Positions 10,792 through 64,000 of a stretch of DNA of 64,000 nucleotides are shown one piece after another; the first letter of the stretch is position 1, and every line of letters starts with the position of its first letter. The translations under genes and the position numbers were made by a program. Under the pieces are notes generated by a model, which did no database searches, was not told the origin of the DNA, and saw only the letters and a program-made list of their open reading frames with translations. The stretch spans positions 2,604,124 through 2,668,123 of the forward strand of contig JAEVLN010000013.1 of NCBI GenBank assembly GCA_018350325.1, read 5' to 3'. Source of the DNA: Globodera rostochiensis. Lineage: Eukaryota; Nematoda; Chromadorea; Rhabditida; Heteroderidae.

Positions 10792-11586
10792 CAACTCCGT
10801 CCCGAGCCAACTCCGTCCCGAGCCAACTCCGTCCCGAGCCAACTCCGTCCCGAGCCAACTCCGTCCCGAGCCAACTCCGTCCCGAGCCAACTCCGTCCCG
10901 AGCCAACTCCGTCCCGAGCCAACTCCGTCCCGAGCCAACTCCGTCCGAGCCAACTCCGTCCCGAGCCAACTCCGTCCCGAGCCAACTCCGTCCCGAGCCA
11001 ACTCCGTCCCGAGCCAACTCCGTCCCGAGCCAACTCCGTCCCGAGCCAACTCCGTCCCGAGCCAACTCCGTCCCGAGCCAACTCCGTCCCGAGCCAACTC
11101 CGTCCCGAGCCAACTCCGTCCCGAGCCAACTCCGTCCCGAGCCAACTCCGTCCCGAGCCAACTCCGTCCCGAGCCAACTCCGTCCCGAGCCAACTCCGTC
11201 CCGAGCCAACTCCGTCCCGAGCCAACTCCGTCCCGAGCCAACTCCGTCCCGAGCCAACTCCGTCCCGAGCCAACTCCGTCCCGAGCCAACTCCGTCCCGA
11301 GCCAACTCCGTCCCGAGCCAACTCCGTCCCGAGCCAACTCCGTCCCGAGCCAACTCCGTCCCGAGCCAACTCCGTCCCGAGCCAACTCCGTCCCGAGCCA
11401 ACTCCGTCCCGAGCCAACTCCGTCCCGAGCCAACTCCGTCCCGAGCCAACTCCGTCCCGAGCCAACTCCGTCCCGAGCCAACTCCGTCCCGAGCCAACTC
11501 CGTCCCGAGCCAACTCCGTCCCGAGCCAACTCCGTCCCGAGCCAACTCCGTCCCGAGCCAACTCCGTCCCGAGCCAACTCCGTCCC
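10792..11586. repeat. 16-bp tandem satellite, about 50 copies
   Basis: The unit CCAACTCCGTCCCGAG repeats head-to-tail with almost no divergence; one copy near 10,944 lacks a base. The unit has no stop codon in any frame on either strand, so long open frames of 256-322 codons on both strands are artefacts. Five reversed variant copies lie at 11,826-11,900. High copy identity suggests recent expansion. Confidence 0.95.
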
Positions 11587-11825: not shown

Positions 11826-11900
11826 TGGGACGGAGTTGGCGGGACGGAGTTGGCGGGACGGAGTTGGCTGGGACGGAGTTGGCGGGACGGAGTTGGCTCG
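11826..11900. repeat. Inverted short array of the same satellite
   Basis: Five copies of GGGACGGAGTTGGC, the reverse complement of the 16-bp satellite with units shortened to 14-16 bases, lie about 240 bases beyond the main array. Just before it (about 11,780-11,815) is a copy of the CTTAGGCCTAAG palindrome repeat that is tandem at 28.4 kb. Confidence 0.85.
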
Positions 11901-56185: not shown

Positions 56186-56828
56186 TGAAGAATTCTCTGC
56201 TGCTTAATTTTTAAGAATTAGGCAAAGTTTTGGGAGGAGCGCTGGCGAAGAGAATTATTTCCTTCCACATAAATATTTGTTACATGGCGACCCGCCGATG
56301 GTCGATCGATGTCCGTCTGTTGTTGTGCATGTTTTATGTACTCCCCCCCCCCAAGTCCGTCTGTTGTTGTGCATGTTTTATGTACTCCCCCCCCCAAGTC
56401 CGTCTGTTGTTGTGCATGCCCCCCCCCCTCATCTTACAAATAGCCCCCCCCTTTAGGTCCAATTTGATAAAACTGAATGATCTCCTCCTCCTCCTTGATG
56501 AAACTGAACACTTCCTCCTTGGGAGATCGTCCATCCTATTCTCCACCACGTGAATTTTTTTACATAAGAGTAAAGGGTCACATTGCCCCCCCCCAAAGCA
56601 CGCCGTTCATTCATTCATTTATTCATTAAATCATTCAATTCATTCATTCTCTCCCCTTCTCGCCACAATTCATCTGCACTATGATTCCACTGCATTGATT
56701 GATTGATTGCCCCCCCCTTCAATTATATATAAGTGTTGCCCCCCCTCCCCCCCCTCCCCCCCCCCCTCCTCGCCCTTCAGTCATTCTCTCACCGGTTCAC
56801 ATCATCAACAGTTCCCCATTCGGCTGCT
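56186..56828. other. Divergent promoter region of moeA and ivd
   Basis: Divergent starts lie 643 bp apart. The region holds C-runs and a triplicated unit at about 56,311-56,425. It should contain both promoters, but no individual element was recognised. Confidence 0.5.
56311..56425. repeat. Three tandem copies of a roughly 45-bp unit
   Basis: GTCCGTCTGTTGTTGTGCATG followed by TTTTATGTACT and a C-run occurs twice in full and a third time in part between the moeA and ivd starts. Confidence 0.8.
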
Positions 56829-59800
56829 ATGCGATCCCTTCCCCTTCATCTCAGTGCCCCCCGGAGAAGCCTTTCTTCCGTATTGCCAAGCACTTCCTCT
56901 CCGCGCTCGCCCCCCTCTCCCTCGCCATGCCCTCCGTTCCTCCTCCGTGCCTCTCTCTCAACTCATTACCCCATCGATGACCAAATGTTCGGTTTGGATG
57001 AGGAACAACGACAGGTGATGACATTGCACAAAAGGTTGGAGAGTTCAGCGTCCCTCTCTCCGTTAGCTCCGCCGTACGGTCTTTCGTCTAGCACAGAGAG
57101 AATTGGCCCCATTTGCCAGCGAAATTGATCGTCTGAACGAGTTCCCAAGGCTTCGAGACTTTTGGCGGTTGCTCGGCCAGAACGGGCTTTTGGGGGTTAC
57201 TGCTCCATCGGAGTACGGCGGGTCGGATCGGACCTACTTTGATCATTGCATTGTGATGGAGGTGGGAGGGGGGGACGGGGGAGGGGGGAGGAGGGAGGTG
57301 GGAGCTGGGAGGGGGGGGAGGGAGGGGGGAGGAGGGAGGGGGGAGGAGGGAGGTGGGAGGGGGGACGGGGGAGGGGGAGGAGGGAGGTGGGAGCTGGGAG
57401 GGGGGAGGAGGGAGGGGGGAGGAGGGAGGTGGGAGAGGGAGGTGGGAGCTGGGAGGGGGGAGGAGGGAGGAGGGAGGGGGGAGGAGGGAGGTGGAGGGGG
57501 GAGGGGGGAGGAGGGAGGAGGGAGGGGGGAGGAGGGAGGTGGGAGGGGGGAGGGGGAGGAGGGAGGGGGGAGGGGGGAGGTGGGAGGGGGGAGGAGGGAG
57601 GTGGGAGGGGGAGGTGGGAGGTGGGAGGGGGGAGGAGGGAGGGGGGAGGAGGGAGGGGGGAGGAGGGAGGGGGAGGAGGGAGGGGGGAGGTGGGAGGGGG
57701 GAGGAGGGAGGGGGAGGAGGGAGGTGGGAGGGGGAGGGGGGAGGGGGGAGGGGGGACGGGGGAGGGGGGACGGGGGAGGAGGGAGGGGGAGGGGGGAGGA
57801 GGGAGGGGGGAGGTGGGAGGTGGGAGGGGGGAGGAGGGAGGTGGGAGGGGGACGGGGGAGGAGGGAGGTGGGAGGTGGGAGGGGGGAGGTGGGAGGGGGG
57901 AGGTGGACGGGGGAGGAGGGAGGGGGGAGGGGGGAGGGGGGACGGGGGAGGAGGGAGGGGGGAGGGGGAGGGGGAGGAGGGAGGTGGGAGGGGGGAGGAG
58001 GGAGGGGGGAGGAGGGAGGGGGGAGAGGGAGGGGGGAGGGGGGGGGAGGGAGGGGGGGGGAGGTGGGAGGGGGGAGGGGGGACGGGGAGGAGGGAGGGGG
58101 GAGGAGGGAGGGGGAGGAGGGAGGTGGGAGGGGGGAGGAGGGGGGGGGAGGAGGGAGGGGGGAGGAGGGAGGGGGGGGGAGGGAGGGGGGGGGAGGTGGG
58201 AGGGGAGGGGGGGGGGAGGGGGGGGGGGAGGGAGGGGGGAGGGGGAAGGAGGGAGGGGGAGGAGGGAGGTGGGAGGGGGGAGGAGGGAGGAGGGAGGGGG
58301 GAGGAGGGAGGGGGAGGAGGAGGTGGGAGGGGGGAGGAGGGAGGGGGGAGGAGGGAGGGGGGAGGAGGGAGGGGGGAGGAGGTGGGAGGGGGGAGGAGGG
58401 AGGGGGGAGGGGGAGGTGGGAGGGGGGAGGGGGGGAGAGGGAGGGGGGAGGGGGGAGGAGGGAGGGGGGAGGAGGGAGGAGGGAGGAGGGAGGGGGAGGA
58501 GGGAGGGGGGAGGAGGGAGGTGGGAGGGGGGAGGAGGGAGGGGGGAGGGGGGAGGGGGAGGAGGGAGGTGGGAGGGAGGAGGGAGGGGGGAGGGGGGAGG
58601 AGGGAGGGGGGAGGGGGAGGAGGGAGGAGGGAGGGGGGAGGAGGGAGGTGGGAGGGGGGAGGAGGGAGCTGGGGGGGGGAGGTGGGAGGGGGGAGGAGGG
58701 AGGGGGGAGGAGGGAGGTGGGAGGGGGGAGGGGGACGGGGGAGGAGGGAGGTGGGAGGGGGGAGGTGGGAGGAGGGAGGTGGGAGGGAGGAGGAGGAGGG
58801 AGGGGGGAGGGGGGAGGAGGGAGGGGGGAGGAGGGAGGAGGGAGGAGGGAGAGGGAGGGGGGACGGGGGAGGAGGGAGGTGGGAGGGGGGAGGAGGGAGC
58901 TGGGAGGTGGAGGGGGGAGGAGGGAGGGGGGAGGAGGGAGGGGGGAGGGGGGAGGAGGGAGAGGGGAGGGGGGGGGGAGGAGGGAGGTGGGAGGGGGGAC
59001 GGGGGAGGAGGGAGGGGGGACGGGGGGCGGGGGAGGTGGGAGGGGGGAGGTGGGAGGAGGGAGGTGGGAGGGGGGAGGGAGGAGGAGGGGGAGGAGGGAG
59101 GGGGGAGGAGGGAGGTGGGAGGGGGGAGGAGGGAGGTGGGAGGGGGAGGAGGGAGGTGGGAGGGGGGAGGGGGGAGGTGGGAGGGGGGAGGAGGGAGGGG
59201 GGAGAGGGAGGTGGGAGGGGGGAGGGGGGGGGGAGGGAGGGGGGGGAGGTGGGAGGGGGGAGGGGGGGGAGGGGGGGGGAGGAGGGAGGTGGGACGGGGG
59301 AGGAGGGAGGGGGGAGGAGGGAGTGGGACGGGGGGAGGAGGGAGGTGGGAGGGGGGAGGAGGGAGGGGGGAGGAGGGAGGAGGAGGTGGGAGGGGGGACG
59401 GGGGAGGAGGGAGGAGGGAGGGGGGAGGGGGGACGGGGGAGGGGGAGGAGGGAGGTGGGAGGGGGGAGGAGGGAGGTGGGAGGGGGGAGGAGGGAGGGGG
59501 AGGGGGGTGGGAGGGAGGGGGGGGAGGTGGGAGGGGGGAGGGGGGGGGGAGGGGGGGGGAGGAGGGAGGTGGGAGGGGGGAGGAGGGAGGGGGGAGGAGG
59601 GAGGTGGGAGGGGGGAGAGGGAGGTGGGAGGTGGGAGGGGGGAGGAGGGAGGGGGGAGGAGGGAGGTGGAGGGGGGGGGGGGAGGAGGGAGGAGGGAGGG
59701 GGGAGGGGGGACGGGGGAGGAGGGACCGGGGAGGGGGACGGGGGAGGAGGGACGGGGGAGGAGGGAGGGGGGAGGTGGGAGGTGGGAGGGGGGAGAGGGA

Positions 59801-62277
59801 GGAGGGAGGTGGGACGGGGGAGGAGGGAGGAGGGAGGAGGGAGGGGGGAGGAGGAGGGTGGAGGTGGGAGGGGGGAGGGGGGGGAGGGAGGTGGGAGGGG
59901 GGAGGAGGGAGGGGGAGGTGGAGGGGGGAGGGGGGAGGAGGGAGGAGGGAGGGGGGAGGTGGGAGGGGGGAGGGGGAGGTGGGAGGGGGGAGGAGGGAGG
60001 TGGGACGGGGGAGGAGGGAGGAGGGAGGTGGACGGGGGAGGAGGGAGGAGGGAGGAGGGAGGGGGGAGGAGGGAGGGGGGAGGAGGGAGGTGGAGGTGGG
60101 AGGGGGGAGGGGGGGGGGAGGGAGGTGGGAGGGGGGAGGGGGGGGAGGAGGAGGGAGGAGGGGGAGGGAGGTGGGAGGGGGGAGGGGGGGGGGGAGGGAG
60201 GAGGGAGAGGGAGGGGGGAGGAGGGAGGGTGGAGGTGGGAGGGGGGGGGGGGGAGGTGGGAGGGGGAGGAGGGAGGTGGGAGGAGGGAGGAGGGAGGGGG
60301 GAGGAGGGAGGGTGGAGGTGGGAGGGGGGGGGGGGGGAGGGAGGAGGGAGGGGGGAGGGGGGGGGTCAGATGCCGGGCAAAAGGAATGCCAACTATTCGG
60401 TGTCTCTTCGAAAGTTAATAAATGCCCACAAAAGGAATTGTCTCGCGCCAGCGGCGCCATCGCCCTCAGCTACGGCGCCCATTCTAATTTGTGCGTCAAC
60501 CAAATCCGGCGGCACGGCACCCCCGCGCAAAAGGCCAAATATTTGCCCAAGGCATTTTGTCTCAATTCGCTTTTTCCTTTTTCTAACTTTCCCGGTCAGC
60601 TGTGCTCTGGAGAAGCCATTGGCGCATTGGCAATGAGTGAGACGAGTGCAGGCTCTGATGTTGTTTCGATGGTGGGGCGGGTGCTTAGGGAGGGAGGCGG
60701 ATGCGGGGGATGGGGGAGGGGGGCGGATGCGGGGGAGGAGGGCGATGCGGGGGCGGGGGAGGGGGGCGGATGCGGGGGCGGGGGAGGGGGCTGGAGGGGG
60801 GCGATGCGGGGGAGGAGGGCGGATGCGGGGGCGGGGGAGGGGGGCGGAAGAGGGGGGCGGATCGGGGGAGGAGGGCGGATGCGGGGGCGGGGGAGGGGGC
60901 TGGAGGGGGCGGGATGGGGGGAGGAGGGCGGATGCGGGGGCGGGGGAGGGGGGCGGAAGAGGGGGGCGGATGCGGGGGAGGAGGGCGGATGCGGGGGCGG
61001 AAGAGGGGGGCGGATGCGGGGGCGGGGGAGGGGGGCAAACGACCCGCGGTTATAATCCATTCCGTAATTGTTATTTTCCCGTTTCAAACTCGCATCATTT
61101 GTTTGATAACGAAACACATAATTTTCATTTTTGTTAGAAGTTGAGTGCGCATAAGACAGGCGATGGGCGTCACTTTGTGTTGAACGGCTCCAAGTTTTGG
61201 ATAACCAACGGACCGGATGCGGATGTTCTGGTGGTTTATGCAAAAACGAGCCCGGCCAAACATCAGCACGGAATCACGGCATTTATAGTGGAGAAGGTGG
61301 GGGAAGGATGGGAAAGTCCTTCGACGGACGATCACAATTTTGGACAAATTTCTGTGAAATGAAAGGACTTTCCGGGCTTTTCGCGCGCTCAGAAGCTGGA
61401 CAAGTTGGGAATGCGGGGCTCCAACACATGCGAACTGGTGTTCGACAACTGCGAAGTGCCCGGTAAGTTTTTGCGTCCGACTGCCCACGCCTTTGGACAT
61501 TTTTTAAGCGGAGAATATCCTTGGCGAGGAGGACAGAGGCGTGTACGTGCTGATGTCGGGGCTGGACTCTGAGCGACTCGTCCTTGCGGCGGGACCCCTC
61601 GGGTCGGCATGGATTTAAACTGCTGAAGGGCGAACGCCTCCCCCCCCCCCTTAGACTGATGCAGGCCGCCTGTGATGTCGCCTTTGAATATGCCCACTCG
61701 CGCATTGCCTTCAGCAGTCCCATCGGCACTTTTCAGGTAGAGAAAAGGGACAAATGGATCAGACAAAAGGGAAATGTTTGTCTCCCCCCACCCCTTATTG
61801 AAAATCGGGCAATTCTAAAAAGAGGACGAATATTCTGTCACCGTCCACAGCTAATGCAAGGGAAACTGGCGGACATGTACGTGCGTTTGTCCGCCTCCAG
61901 GGCGTATTTGTACACAATAGCACGAAACGCGGATTCGGATGAACTGCTCGGCGCAAAAGTATTTATTTCTCAAAACTTGGACGAACGGTGCTCTTCTGAA
62001 GGATTCGGCTGGAGTGATCCTCTTTTTGGCCGAGAATGCCACTCAGATGGCATTGGACGCCATTCAGGTCGATCAGATTGGTTGGAAGGGACTGATCGGA
62101 CAGACAAACGAACTGAATTTGGGCTTTGAGGTGTTGGGAGGCAACGGCTACATTAACGACTACCCCACGGGGCGTCTGCTCCGAGACGCGAAACTGTATG
62201 AAATTGGCGCCGGAACATCGGAAGTACGACGGCTGGTGATCGGAAGAGCGCTGAACAAAGAGTACATAATAAAATGA
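56829..62277 (+). CDS. ivd-1: Isovaleryl-CoA dehydrogenase, mitochondrial
   Basis: FAD enzyme of leucine breakdown. The first exon (56,829-57,014) encodes a basic, serine-rich mitochondrial presequence [20 protein letters not shown] and the mature start [17 protein letters not shown]. Then follow [146 protein letters not shown] (holding the glutamate used as catalytic base in this family), [40 protein letters not shown] and [20 protein letters not shown] through [13 protein letters not shown]. All family parts are present, so the gene should work if two G-rich introns (57,262-60,434; 60,672-61,137) are spliced. The junction near 57,030-57,095 is uncertain. Confidence 0.93.
57262..60365 (+). 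repeat. 3.1-kb G-rich purine array inside an ivd intron
   Basis: About 3,100 consecutive bases consist almost only of G and A, in words such as GGGAGGA, GGGAGGT and GGGAGGGG, with rare T (in GGTGGG) and C (in GACGGG). It starts right at the GTGGGAGG donor and fills nearly all of the 3,173-base intron. All three plus frames and one minus frame stay open for over 1,000 codons because stop codons cannot form from these words; these are not genes. Runs of G in groups of three or more continue throughout, so G-quadruplex and triplex formation are strongly favoured. Confidence 0.97.
60552..60599 (+). other. GC-AG intron in ivd
   Basis: 48 bases from AAG|GCATTTT to CGGTCAG lie between KYLPK and [12 protein letters not shown]. 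Family alignment leaves no room for the 16 in-frame residues it would encode. Being open and a multiple of three, retention would still be translatable. Confidence 0.75.
60672..61036 (+). repeat. Second G-rich minisatellite in the next GT-AG ivd intron
   Basis: About 365 bases of GGGGGAGGAGGGCGGATGC and GGGGGCGGGGGAGGGG words. It differs from the first array in having regular C (GGGCGGATGCGGGG). It starts at the GTGGGGCGGG donor of the intron 60,672-61,137. Confidence 0.93.
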
Positions 62278-62480: not shown

Positions 62481-63148
62481 TTATTGTCTCTCTTCTTCCG
62501 AACTTCGTCCAAATCGAATCAGAGGCACCGCATTGGCCGTCCGAATCTGAGCTCTTTTCCCGAACCGAATCAGTGGGGCGGCCCTTTCCGCTGGACGACG
62601 TCCGAATCGCATCAACGGAACAACGATCGACCGTTTGAAAAATCGGAAGGGATCAGCGGATGAAAGCTGAAATGAAAGGAATGGAGGAGGGGTGAAAGCT
62701 CCCCACGGATTGGGTGAAGGTCGTAGGTTCGAGTCCCACCCGCCGTCGGGGGTTGCCTCTTTAACTTGAGGAAAACTGACCGGCTTGAATCCTTCCATAA
62801 ATTGGTCATCCCCAGAACGTTTTTCGAATCGAATGATCGGTTCGGTGGACGGTGTCCTTTTCATGTATGACCAGGGCTGGTAGAACATCCGTTTTCCGCC
62901 TGAAGTCGAATTGCATTTGTCCACTCCCTTTTTATGGTACCTTTTTCCTCCAAAATTCGTAATTCGGCCGATTCGTAACTCTGCGCACTGACTGACGAAG
63001 AGATGAATAGCAGCGGGAGGAAGAGGAAGAGAGCGCGTGGAATGGCCGTGGGCACGGGCCAAGGTAAATAGCGGCGACGTGCGATGGGAGAGGTAAGGGA
63101 ACAACGGCTAACAATGCGTCGGATGGGCGGTGGACGCTGACGACTCAT
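62481..63148 (-). CDS. flp-13: FMRFamide-like neuropeptide precursor, FLP-13-like
   Basis: Three exons (63148-62941, 62899-62781, 62666-62481) join in phase to 170 residues. After a basic N-region, a hydrophobic run ALFLFLPLLFISSSVSAQ forms the signal peptide. Dibasic sites then release DPFRFF-KR, SIVVPLMRFG-RR, AAPLIRFG-KR and NAVPLIRFG-R, plus STEPIIRF-EKR, which lacks the amidation glycine. The APLIRFG and AVPLIRFG endings are the hallmark of nematode FLP-13 peptides, which act in neurons (in C. elegans, sleep-related quiescence). The second intron carries a B-box-like GGTTCGAGTCC on the plus strand. The gene ends convergently with ivd, 204 bp apart. Confidence 0.85.
62700..62760 (+). repeat. 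tRNA-derived fragment in a flp-13 intron
   Basis: GGTTCGAGTCCCACC at about 62,727-62,741 matches the pol III B-box/T-arm of tRNAs. No A-box or acceptor stem is found upstream, so it is a tRNA or SINE remnant, not a gene. Confidence 0.5.
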
Positions 63149-64000
63149 CCCCCAACAATAAATACAAAAGTGTCAATTGGAAATGGCAAATTGCTTGAAC
63201 AGTCTCCCCCCCCCCCCCGTCTCTAATTGCTAATTAAGCGGTGTGGGGGGGGGGAAGAATAAAGTAACGGGGGGGGGGGGGGGAATGGGGGGTAGGGGGG
63301 GGGGGGGGGGGCACTCACACTGCCGGCGGCGGGGGGACCCCGCCGCCATTCGAAAGCTCCGTCTGAAGATTTGTGCTATTTTTGGAATTCCATTTTTAGT
63401 AGGCTAGATCATTGCTTTAATCACAGAGCTTTTATAGCATCTTGGACAGCTCTGACGGCGAATCGTCGTCGCGAGTTGTCCTCTTCGGGTGGGTTTTGGG
63501 AATGGACATTTTCGGAATTCAGAAGGGTCGTCGGGGGGGGGGGGGGGGGGGGGGGTCCTTCCTCCCCTTTTCCTTTAAAACAGCAGATGCTCCAATGTTT
63601 ATTGGGTGTAAATGTTTTGAACGTTCCGCCACAACTCGGTTGATCTCAAAAACAGAGAAATATGTAATCCGACAACTTTGCGAGCGAGCGAATGTCCGAA
63701 GGGAGTCAAAACAATATGCCAACGGACCTTTAATTAATAAAAGCATTTTAGTAGCGGCGGAAGAGCACAAATCCGGTTACACAGCACTTTTCCGGATGAA
63801 AAAAGGAGTAAGAGTGCCATTGTTGTTCATTTCCGACGTTCGTCGCTTGGGGGGATGTCCCCCCTCGAGCGAAGACATACGTAATTCCTTTGGGAGGGGC
63901 TGAGACACACGATGTTTACAGAAACACTGTCCAATCAAAGATTGAACTGGAGTGAGTTGTTGCCTGCACCCTCCCTCCTAGTGAACAAAACTGAGAGGGG
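63149..64000. other. Poly-G-rich flank, no supported gene
   Basis: Long G-runs lie at about 63,270-63,310 and 63,530-63,560, and a C-run near 63,206. An open frame over 63,442-63,903 crosses a poly-G tract and has no known domain. It should include the flp-13 promoter to its left. Confidence 0.5.

What the first reader, a model, noticed from the sequence alone, without database searches (positions are those of the whole stretch)
57262..60365. A 3.1-kb nearly pure G/A strand fills one intron of a housekeeping gene
Seen: about 3,100 bases made of GGGAGG-type words with rare T and C, all on the coding strand, bounded by good splice sites of isovaleryl-CoA dehydrogenase. Known: G-runs of this kind form G-quadruplexes and R-loops and stall polymerases. 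Inference: transcription produces a multi-kilobase G-rich RNA; the array may regulate splicing, form foci or mark a fragile site. It is unusual in length and strand asymmetry in an otherwise AT-rich genome.
Basis: partly seen in the sequence, partly recalled or inferred. Interest (0 to 1): 0.8.

Follow-up and report, generated by a model that had tools for sequence, protein, structure and literature searches.

The report
Giant G-rich repeat inside one intron
In a potato cyst nematode, one short intron of a metabolic gene appears to have grown to about 3,200 bases by filling with a G-rich 7-base repeat that contains some 70 look-alikes of its own splice-start signal, a natural test of how cells pick the right splice site.

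Summary
Window 57262-60365 is 3,104 bases, 96% G+A on the coding strand: a degenerate 7-base minisatellite, GGGAGGN, with a 55/62-base higher-order period. It fills intron 2 (of my 11-exon model) of isovaleryl-CoA dehydrogenase in Globodera rostochiensis, from the intron's first base to 69 bases before its end. Eight of the ten introns are 43-114 bases; intron 4 (466) holds a second G-rich array.

New: the array holds 70 further copies of the true donor context GGAG|GTGGGA, 26 in frame, and no stop in any sense frame. Placement looks rule-bound: in a 51-intron beta-heavy-spectrin gene, 10 of 10 introns with G-runs have the first run 4-25 bases after the donor; minus the tract, most are ordinary 50-65-base introns. 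C. elegans shows the opposite strand bias (PMC2211496).

Best reading: non-adaptive expansion in a tolerated slot just after the donor, probably R-loop- and G4-prone. Against a genome-wide rule: mirror-controlled word counts and a cruder survey. Splice choice, function, assembly length and polymorphism are untested.

The parts
57262..60365 (+). G-rich heptad array (GGGAGGN), first 3,104 bases of ivd intron 2
57262..60434 (+). ivd intron 2 (11-exon numbering), 3,173 bases, GT-AG; 86 GT besides the true donor, 70 of them in the identical -4..+6 context
60366..60434 (+). 69-base unique 3' end of intron 2 (presumed branch-point/acceptor core)
   Evidence: branch point not identified
57067..57261 (+). 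ivd exon before the array, ending ATGGAG
60435..60551 (+). ivd exon after the array
60672..61137 (+). ivd intron 4, 466 bases, with a second G-rich array (TRF 60688-61036; GATGCGGGGG 11 times); its first run of 6 or more G starts at +46, but it is G-rich from the donor
61297..61365 (+). ivd intron 5, 69 bases, donor GTGGGGGAAGG, no array
56550..56811 (+). first ivd intron implied by P0001 (262 bases), five C-runs, four in its 3' half
61603..61654 (+). ivd intron 7, 52 bases, run of 11 C ending 4 bases before the acceptor

Best explanation
A short intron (about 70 bases) of the housekeeping gene ivd carried a G-rich tract directly after its 5' splice site. The tract expanded, by slippage, template switching or unequal exchange of multi-unit blocks, into a 3.1-kb heptad minisatellite. 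Growth is tolerated only between the donor and the 3' core (branch point, acceptor), which is why the array starts at intron base 1 and leaves 69 unique bases. The array is transcribed as G-rich RNA and removed as one intron, using the first of 71 identical donor contexts. It is most likely non-adaptive. With G on the non-template strand it should form R-loops and G4s and be prone to length change. Shown: anatomy, gene model, decoy counts, placement in a second gene. Inferred: mechanism of growth, transcription, donor choice, R-loops, instability.
For: Array equals the first 3,104 bases of the intron; 69 bases remain, within the 43-114 range of eight of the ten introns. Heptad and 55/62-base higher-order structure. 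Unit word private to the locus: 27 of 27 exact genome hits lie in this array. Spectrin, 51 introns from a G. pallida-guided alignment without composition weights: 10 of 10 G-run introns have the first run at +4 to +25, 0 of 10 within 25 bases of the acceptor, rotation p 0.00045; minus the span of the runs they measure 49-145 bases, eight of ten 49-65, against a median of 55 in the other 41. A kinase exon ends AAAG|GT followed by 11 G. G-tract introns do not have weaker donors (4.0 against 3.9 of 7, p 0.77), which fits tolerance better than compensation.
Against: Mirror-control word counts over the genome go the other way: donor-like word plus G-run 227 against 364; C-run plus acceptor-like word 436 against 1002. 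A cruder gene-finder survey did not show the rule: of 19 intronic G-runs 7 lay in the first half and 12 in the second (9 of the 19 in one predicted minus-strand gene opposite the confirmed spectrin). The placement rule rests on two genes and one exon, and the spectrin loci were fetched because they hold G-rich words. No ancestral or sister-species DNA was seen. The longest exact repeat (57 bases) is within the unit-shuffle range, so no recent large duplication is visible.
Confidence: 0.68

Rival explanations
1. The donor-proximal G-tracts, and the array as their extreme, are functional: G-run splicing enhancers or G4 switches that help donor recognition or tune ivd output.
For: G-rich elements next to the 5' splice site stimulate splicing of short mammalian introns (PMC5778605, passages). 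Placement at +4 to +25 in 10 of 10 spectrin G-run introns.
Against: Donors of G-tract introns are no weaker than the others. 41 of 51 spectrin introns and most ivd introns lack such tracts. A 3.1-kb length exceeds any need of an enhancer (inference).
Confidence: 0.15
2. The array length is an assembly or consensus artefact; the true array is much shorter or longer.
For: G-rich low-complexity sequence is hard to sequence and assemble (general knowledge); no reads seen.
Against: Structured higher-order repeat, not noise; variants in consistent contexts, with 71 of 87 GT in one context; array bounded by intact exons.
Confidence: 0.1
3. The array serves chromosome biology (meiotic pairing, chromatin), as suggested for C. 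elegans G/C tracts.
For: That proposal is made in PMC2211496, Discussion.
Against: The same paper argues against gene-specific conservation; nothing here tests it; the array unit is private to one locus.
Confidence: 0.04
4. The array is translated as a low-complexity part of the protein.
For: No stop in any sense frame across the array; the upstream exon's frame stays open for 1189 codons, to a stop at 60634.
Against: The predicted G. rostochiensis protein and the two Heterodera schachtii proteins read (P0001, P0002, P0005), and human IVD, skip it. Openness follows from the near-lack of T. Retention ends in a premature stop.
Confidence: 0.03

Closest known systems
Human PKD1 intron 21/22 polypurine-polypyrimidine tract (PMC11696556 passages; PMC10873753 text part 1 of 3)
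   Same: Kilobase-scale purine/pyrimidine-biased repeat inside an intron of a wild-type gene; G4 motifs
   Different: In PKD1 the sense strand is the pyrimidine-rich one, so R-loops need antisense transcription there; here the sense strand is G-rich. No donor-like unit is described in the passages I saw.
Immunoglobulin switch regions (as described in PMC10873753)
   Same: G-rich repeat with a C-rich template strand, the orientation that favours R-loops
   Different: No class-switch system is known in nematodes (recalled); different units; not spliced around a donor copy
Pathogenic intronic expansions: C9orf72 GGGGCC and FXN GAA (listings with abstract starts)
   Same: Purine- or G-rich repeat expansion in an intron
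   Different: Those are disease alleles of short uniform units; here a reference-genome array of a degenerate heptad with higher-order structure
C. elegans poly-G/poly-C tracts kept by DOG-1 (PMC2211496, outline and sections 10 and 12)
   Same: Intronic and intergenic G tracts in a nematode
   Different: Homopolymers; unbiased position within introns; twice as many on the non-coding strand (84 to 47)
Mammalian intronic G-runs and G4s near the 5' splice site (PMC5778605, passages)
   Same: Same place and strand, next to the donor, including short introns
   Different: Short elements with tested effects on splicing; here up to 3.1 kb and untested, with no donor-strength compensation

Membership tests
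Minisatellite (tandem repeat) | Head-to-tail repeat of a defined unit with variant copies | tested here: met
   TRF unit 7, 448 copies, 81% matches; 328 perfect GGGAGGN units
Minisatellite (tandem repeat) | Length variation between individuals | not testable with these tools
   Only one assembly available, no reads
R-loop-forming intronic G-rich repeat (switch-region type) | G on the non-template strand over a kilobase or more | tested here: met
   G 77% over 3,104 bases of the coding strand
R-loop-forming intronic G-rich repeat (switch-region type) | RNA:DNA hybrid forms when transcribed | not testable with these tools
   Needs S9.6 or RNase H assays
Immunoglobulin switch region | Target of AID-dependent class switching | not tested
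   Not searched; not expected in a nematode (recalled)
G-run intronic splicing enhancer | G-runs placed just downstream of the donor on the sense strand | tested here: met
   ivd intron 2 (first run of 6 or more G at +6) and 10 of 10 G-run spectrin introns; not for ivd intron 4, whose first such run is at +46
G-run intronic splicing enhancer | Associated with weak donors (compensation) | tested here: not met
   4.0 against 3.9 of 7 positions, p 0.77, one gene, 10 against 41 introns
G-run intronic splicing enhancer | Removing the run changes splicing | not testable with these tools
   Needs a reporter experiment
C. elegans-type intronic G tracts | Preference for the non-coding strand, no position bias in introns (PMC2211496) | tested here: not met
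   Spectrin: 10 introns with sense G-runs and 5 with C-runs (one has both; binomial p 0.30), G-runs all donor-proximal

The most novel reading that the evidence does not exclude
Globodera introns have a fixed growth slot directly after the 5' splice site, in which G-rich tracts arise and expand on the sense strand. In ivd this produced a self-copying donor array: 71 equivalent 5' splice sites in a row, of which the spliceosome reliably takes the first. Such arrays would be a lineage-specific route of intron lengthening and a natural assay for first-donor commitment.
Probability: 0.3. Interest if true: 0.75.

Novelty: new variant of a known kind. Interest (0 to 1): 0.5.

Why it matters
A reference-genome gene that tolerates a 3.1-kb non-template G-rich array would be a natural counterpart to disease repeats and to the PKD1 tract. 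The 70 identical decoy donors make the question of how a spliceosome chooses one donor among equals directly testable from RNA reads. The donor-slot placement, opposite in strand to the published C. elegans bias, suggests a lineage-specific way for introns to lengthen, and can be checked on existing annotations.

Tried and rejected
Array as coding sequence: rejected. Dispersed element: rejected for the array's 20-mer (27 hits, all here). Array born from the exon-intron junction: 63 copies of the 12-mer GGAGGTGGGAGG lie inside, but the AG|GT donor consensus makes a match likely anyway, so it is kept as a suggestion only. Weak-donor compensation: not supported. Gene-finder surveys: one search missed several ivd exons, and one search gave 19 G-runs (7 in the first half of introns, 12 in the second) and 15 C-runs (5 and 10); replaced by protein-guided alignment. 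Mirror-control word counts: against a genome-wide rule. Pfam: five pieces beside other arrays, no hit; 20 ORFs in fetched loci, 9 with a hit at E 0.01 or better. L038 and L048 arrays also begin ...CAG|GTGGGAG, but whether those are introns stayed open. Loss of FANCJ/DOG-1 as a cause: DEAD_2 and Helicase_C_2 each hit the same four places. By recalled motifs I read XPD-like, DDX11-like and two RTEL1-like genes, but a piece of one (L053) scores best with FANCJ among solved structures and a piece of another found nothing useful: undecided.

Full report
What is there. The window is C5:2604124-2668123 of a 92.6-Mb, 80-contig genome. Positions 57262-60365 are 3,104 bases with G 2405, A 581, T 88, C 30. 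TRF calls a 7-base unit, 448 copies, 81% matches, and a 55-base unit. Parsed, the array is GGGAGGN: 328 perfect units of 449 tokens, N being G 141, A 122, T 65, C 0; five base shuffles gave 53-67 perfect units. Autocorrelation peaks at lags 55 and 62 (0.758 each, z 9.4 and 9.3 against 200 unit shuffles), which points to multi-unit duplication. The longest exact repeat is 57 bases, inside the unit-shuffle range (mean 52.7, max 73), so recent large duplications are not visible.

Gene. An 11-exon model gives 440 aa. The best of the 120 listed hits is a G. rostochiensis IVD, 470 aa, 100% identical over the whole query (taxonomy); human IVD has E 2.5e-172. I take the organism to be G. rostochiensis or a very close strain; which assembly it is I could not tell (the published line assemblies have 173 and 189 scaffolds; PMC8359618, passages). 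The 30 extra residues of that protein fit an upstream exon 56477-56549 and a 262-base intron with five C-runs. Of the ten introns of the 11-exon model, eight are 43-114 bases, intron 4 is 466 and intron 2 is 3,173. Intron 3 is GC-AG, a kind reported at 3.46% in G. rostochiensis (PMC4901422, passages). The array is exactly the first 3,104 bases of intron 2; 69 bases follow.

Splicing consequences visible in sequence. Besides the true donor there are 86 further GT in the intron; 70 have the identical -4..+6 context GGAG|GTGGGA, 26 of them in frame; the array holds 557 AG and no stop in any sense frame. Retention would read on to a stop at 60634. Which donor is used in the animal was not tested; the predicted protein implies the first.

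Is it alone? The 20-mer GGGAGGAGGGAGGTGGGAGG occurs 27 times in the genome, all in this array. A 34-base word with up to 3 mismatches has 247 forward and 99 reverse places; of the 100 listed, the 12 exact ones are all here. Other G-rich arrays exist. In 20 fetched 10-kb loci, chosen because they hold a G-rich word, the longest were 944 (L038), 760 (L034, cut by the edge) and 683 bases (L034). At C8:604 kb an 801-base stretch is G-rich throughout almost its whole length, with 12 copies of AAGGTGAGG. So ivd's is the longest array I saw; it is not shown to be the longest in the genome.

A placement rule. A G. pallida beta-heavy spectrin (P0121; 92% identity, 75% of the query covered by the best local alignment) was aligned to 16.4 kb of contig C1 using only GT/GC..AG and fixed penalties. 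This gave 52 exons, 3,839 aa, no stop. Of 51 introns (median 61 bases), 10 carry a run of 6 or more G. The first run starts at +4 to +25 in 10 of 10, and 0 of 10 have a run within 25 bases of the acceptor; rotation p 0.00045. Five carry a run of 6 or more C, ending 4, 7, 40, 121 and 237 bases before the acceptor. G-tract introns are longer (p 0.0036); minus the span of the runs they measure 49, 114, 57, 59, 145, 52, 51, 65, 60 and 54 bases, against a median of 55 in the other 41; donor match is equal (4.0 and 3.9 of 7, p 0.77). A kinase exon elsewhere ends AAAG|GT plus 11 G. In ivd, intron 2 starts its first run of 6 or more G at +6, but intron 4 only at +46, although it is G-rich from the donor. 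In C. elegans, intragenic G tracts favour the non-coding strand, 84 to 47, without positional bias within introns (PMC2211496, section 10).

Against it. Genome-wide counts with mirrored words had the opposite sign: MAGGTRRGGGGGGGG 105+122 against 188+176; CCCCCCCCYTYAG 245+191 against 496+506. These mix intergenic sequence and words of unequal background, but they forbid claiming a genome-wide rule. A cruder gene-finder survey did not show it either (19 G-runs, 7 in the first half of introns and 12 in the second; nine of the 19 come from one predicted minus-strand gene opposite the confirmed spectrin). The rule rests on spectrin, on ivd and on one kinase exon, and the spectrin loci were fetched for their G-rich words. 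Ten G-run against five C-run introns is not significant alone (p 0.30). Part of the donor proximity follows from the geometry of short introns, whose 3' core cannot be interrupted; I regard that constraint as the likely cause.

How it most likely works. Inference: a G-rich stretch after the donor slips or misaligns in replication. Gains are tolerated because they fall between donor and 3' core and are spliced out; losses and exchanges spread 55-62-base blocks. Transcription puts G on the non-template strand, the orientation that gave R-loops with PKD1 sequences in vitro (PMC10873753, text part 1 of 3), so R-loops and G4s are expected but unmeasured.

Known or new. Kilobase intronic purine tracts are known: PKD1 (PMC11696556, passages); switch regions (as cited in PMC10873753); C9orf72 and FXN expansions (listings). 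Mammalian G-runs near donors are known splicing elements (PMC5778605, passages). Searches for Globodera with intron and minisatellite, Globodera with quadruplex and nematode intronic G tracts (15 of 20 listed) showed no title or abstract start that describes this array; only open-licence PMC papers are searched, and I read listings, not the papers. What differs here is the reference-genome state, sense-strand G, a start at intron base 1, and the donor-like unit. I rate it a new variant of a known kind.

Noticed in passing
window 10792-11586 and 11827-11898: A nearly perfect 16-base tandem array (49.8 copies, 99% matches) with a shorter G-rich-strand relative beside it; open in several frames.
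   Followed up: no
window 62481-63107 (-) and 63206-63555: ORF with RFamide-like repeats (neuropeptide-like, recalled motif), with long G- and C-runs just upstream on its strand.
   Followed up: no
G000 C8:603981-604882 (-), 612632-612809 (-), 632439-632912 (+): Another G-rich array with repeated consensus-like donor words AAGGTGAGG, apparently also as an inverted copy; 801 bases read. Intronic or not is unknown.
   Followed up: partly
G000 C3:2892132-2892657: Fourteen listed copies of CCCCCCCCCTCAG about 36 bases apart: a possible acceptor-like mirror of the donor-like array.
   Followed up: no
L051-L054 (G000 C23, C13, C6, C1): DEAD_2/Helicase_C_2 hits at four places only; two look like close paralogues (RTEL1-like by recalled motifs, but one piece scores best with FANCJ). 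Whether a FANCJ/DOG-1 orthologue exists is open.
   Followed up: partly
G000 C48:66603-67341 and 69963-70701; C6:498776-500989 and 579886-582101: Protein-kinase exons in similar inverted pairs, either inverted duplications or assembly palindromes.
   Followed up: no
L038 array start, minus strand; L048:1871: Two other G-rich arrays begin directly after ...CAG|GTGGGAG, like donors; coding status of the flanks not established.
   Followed up: partly
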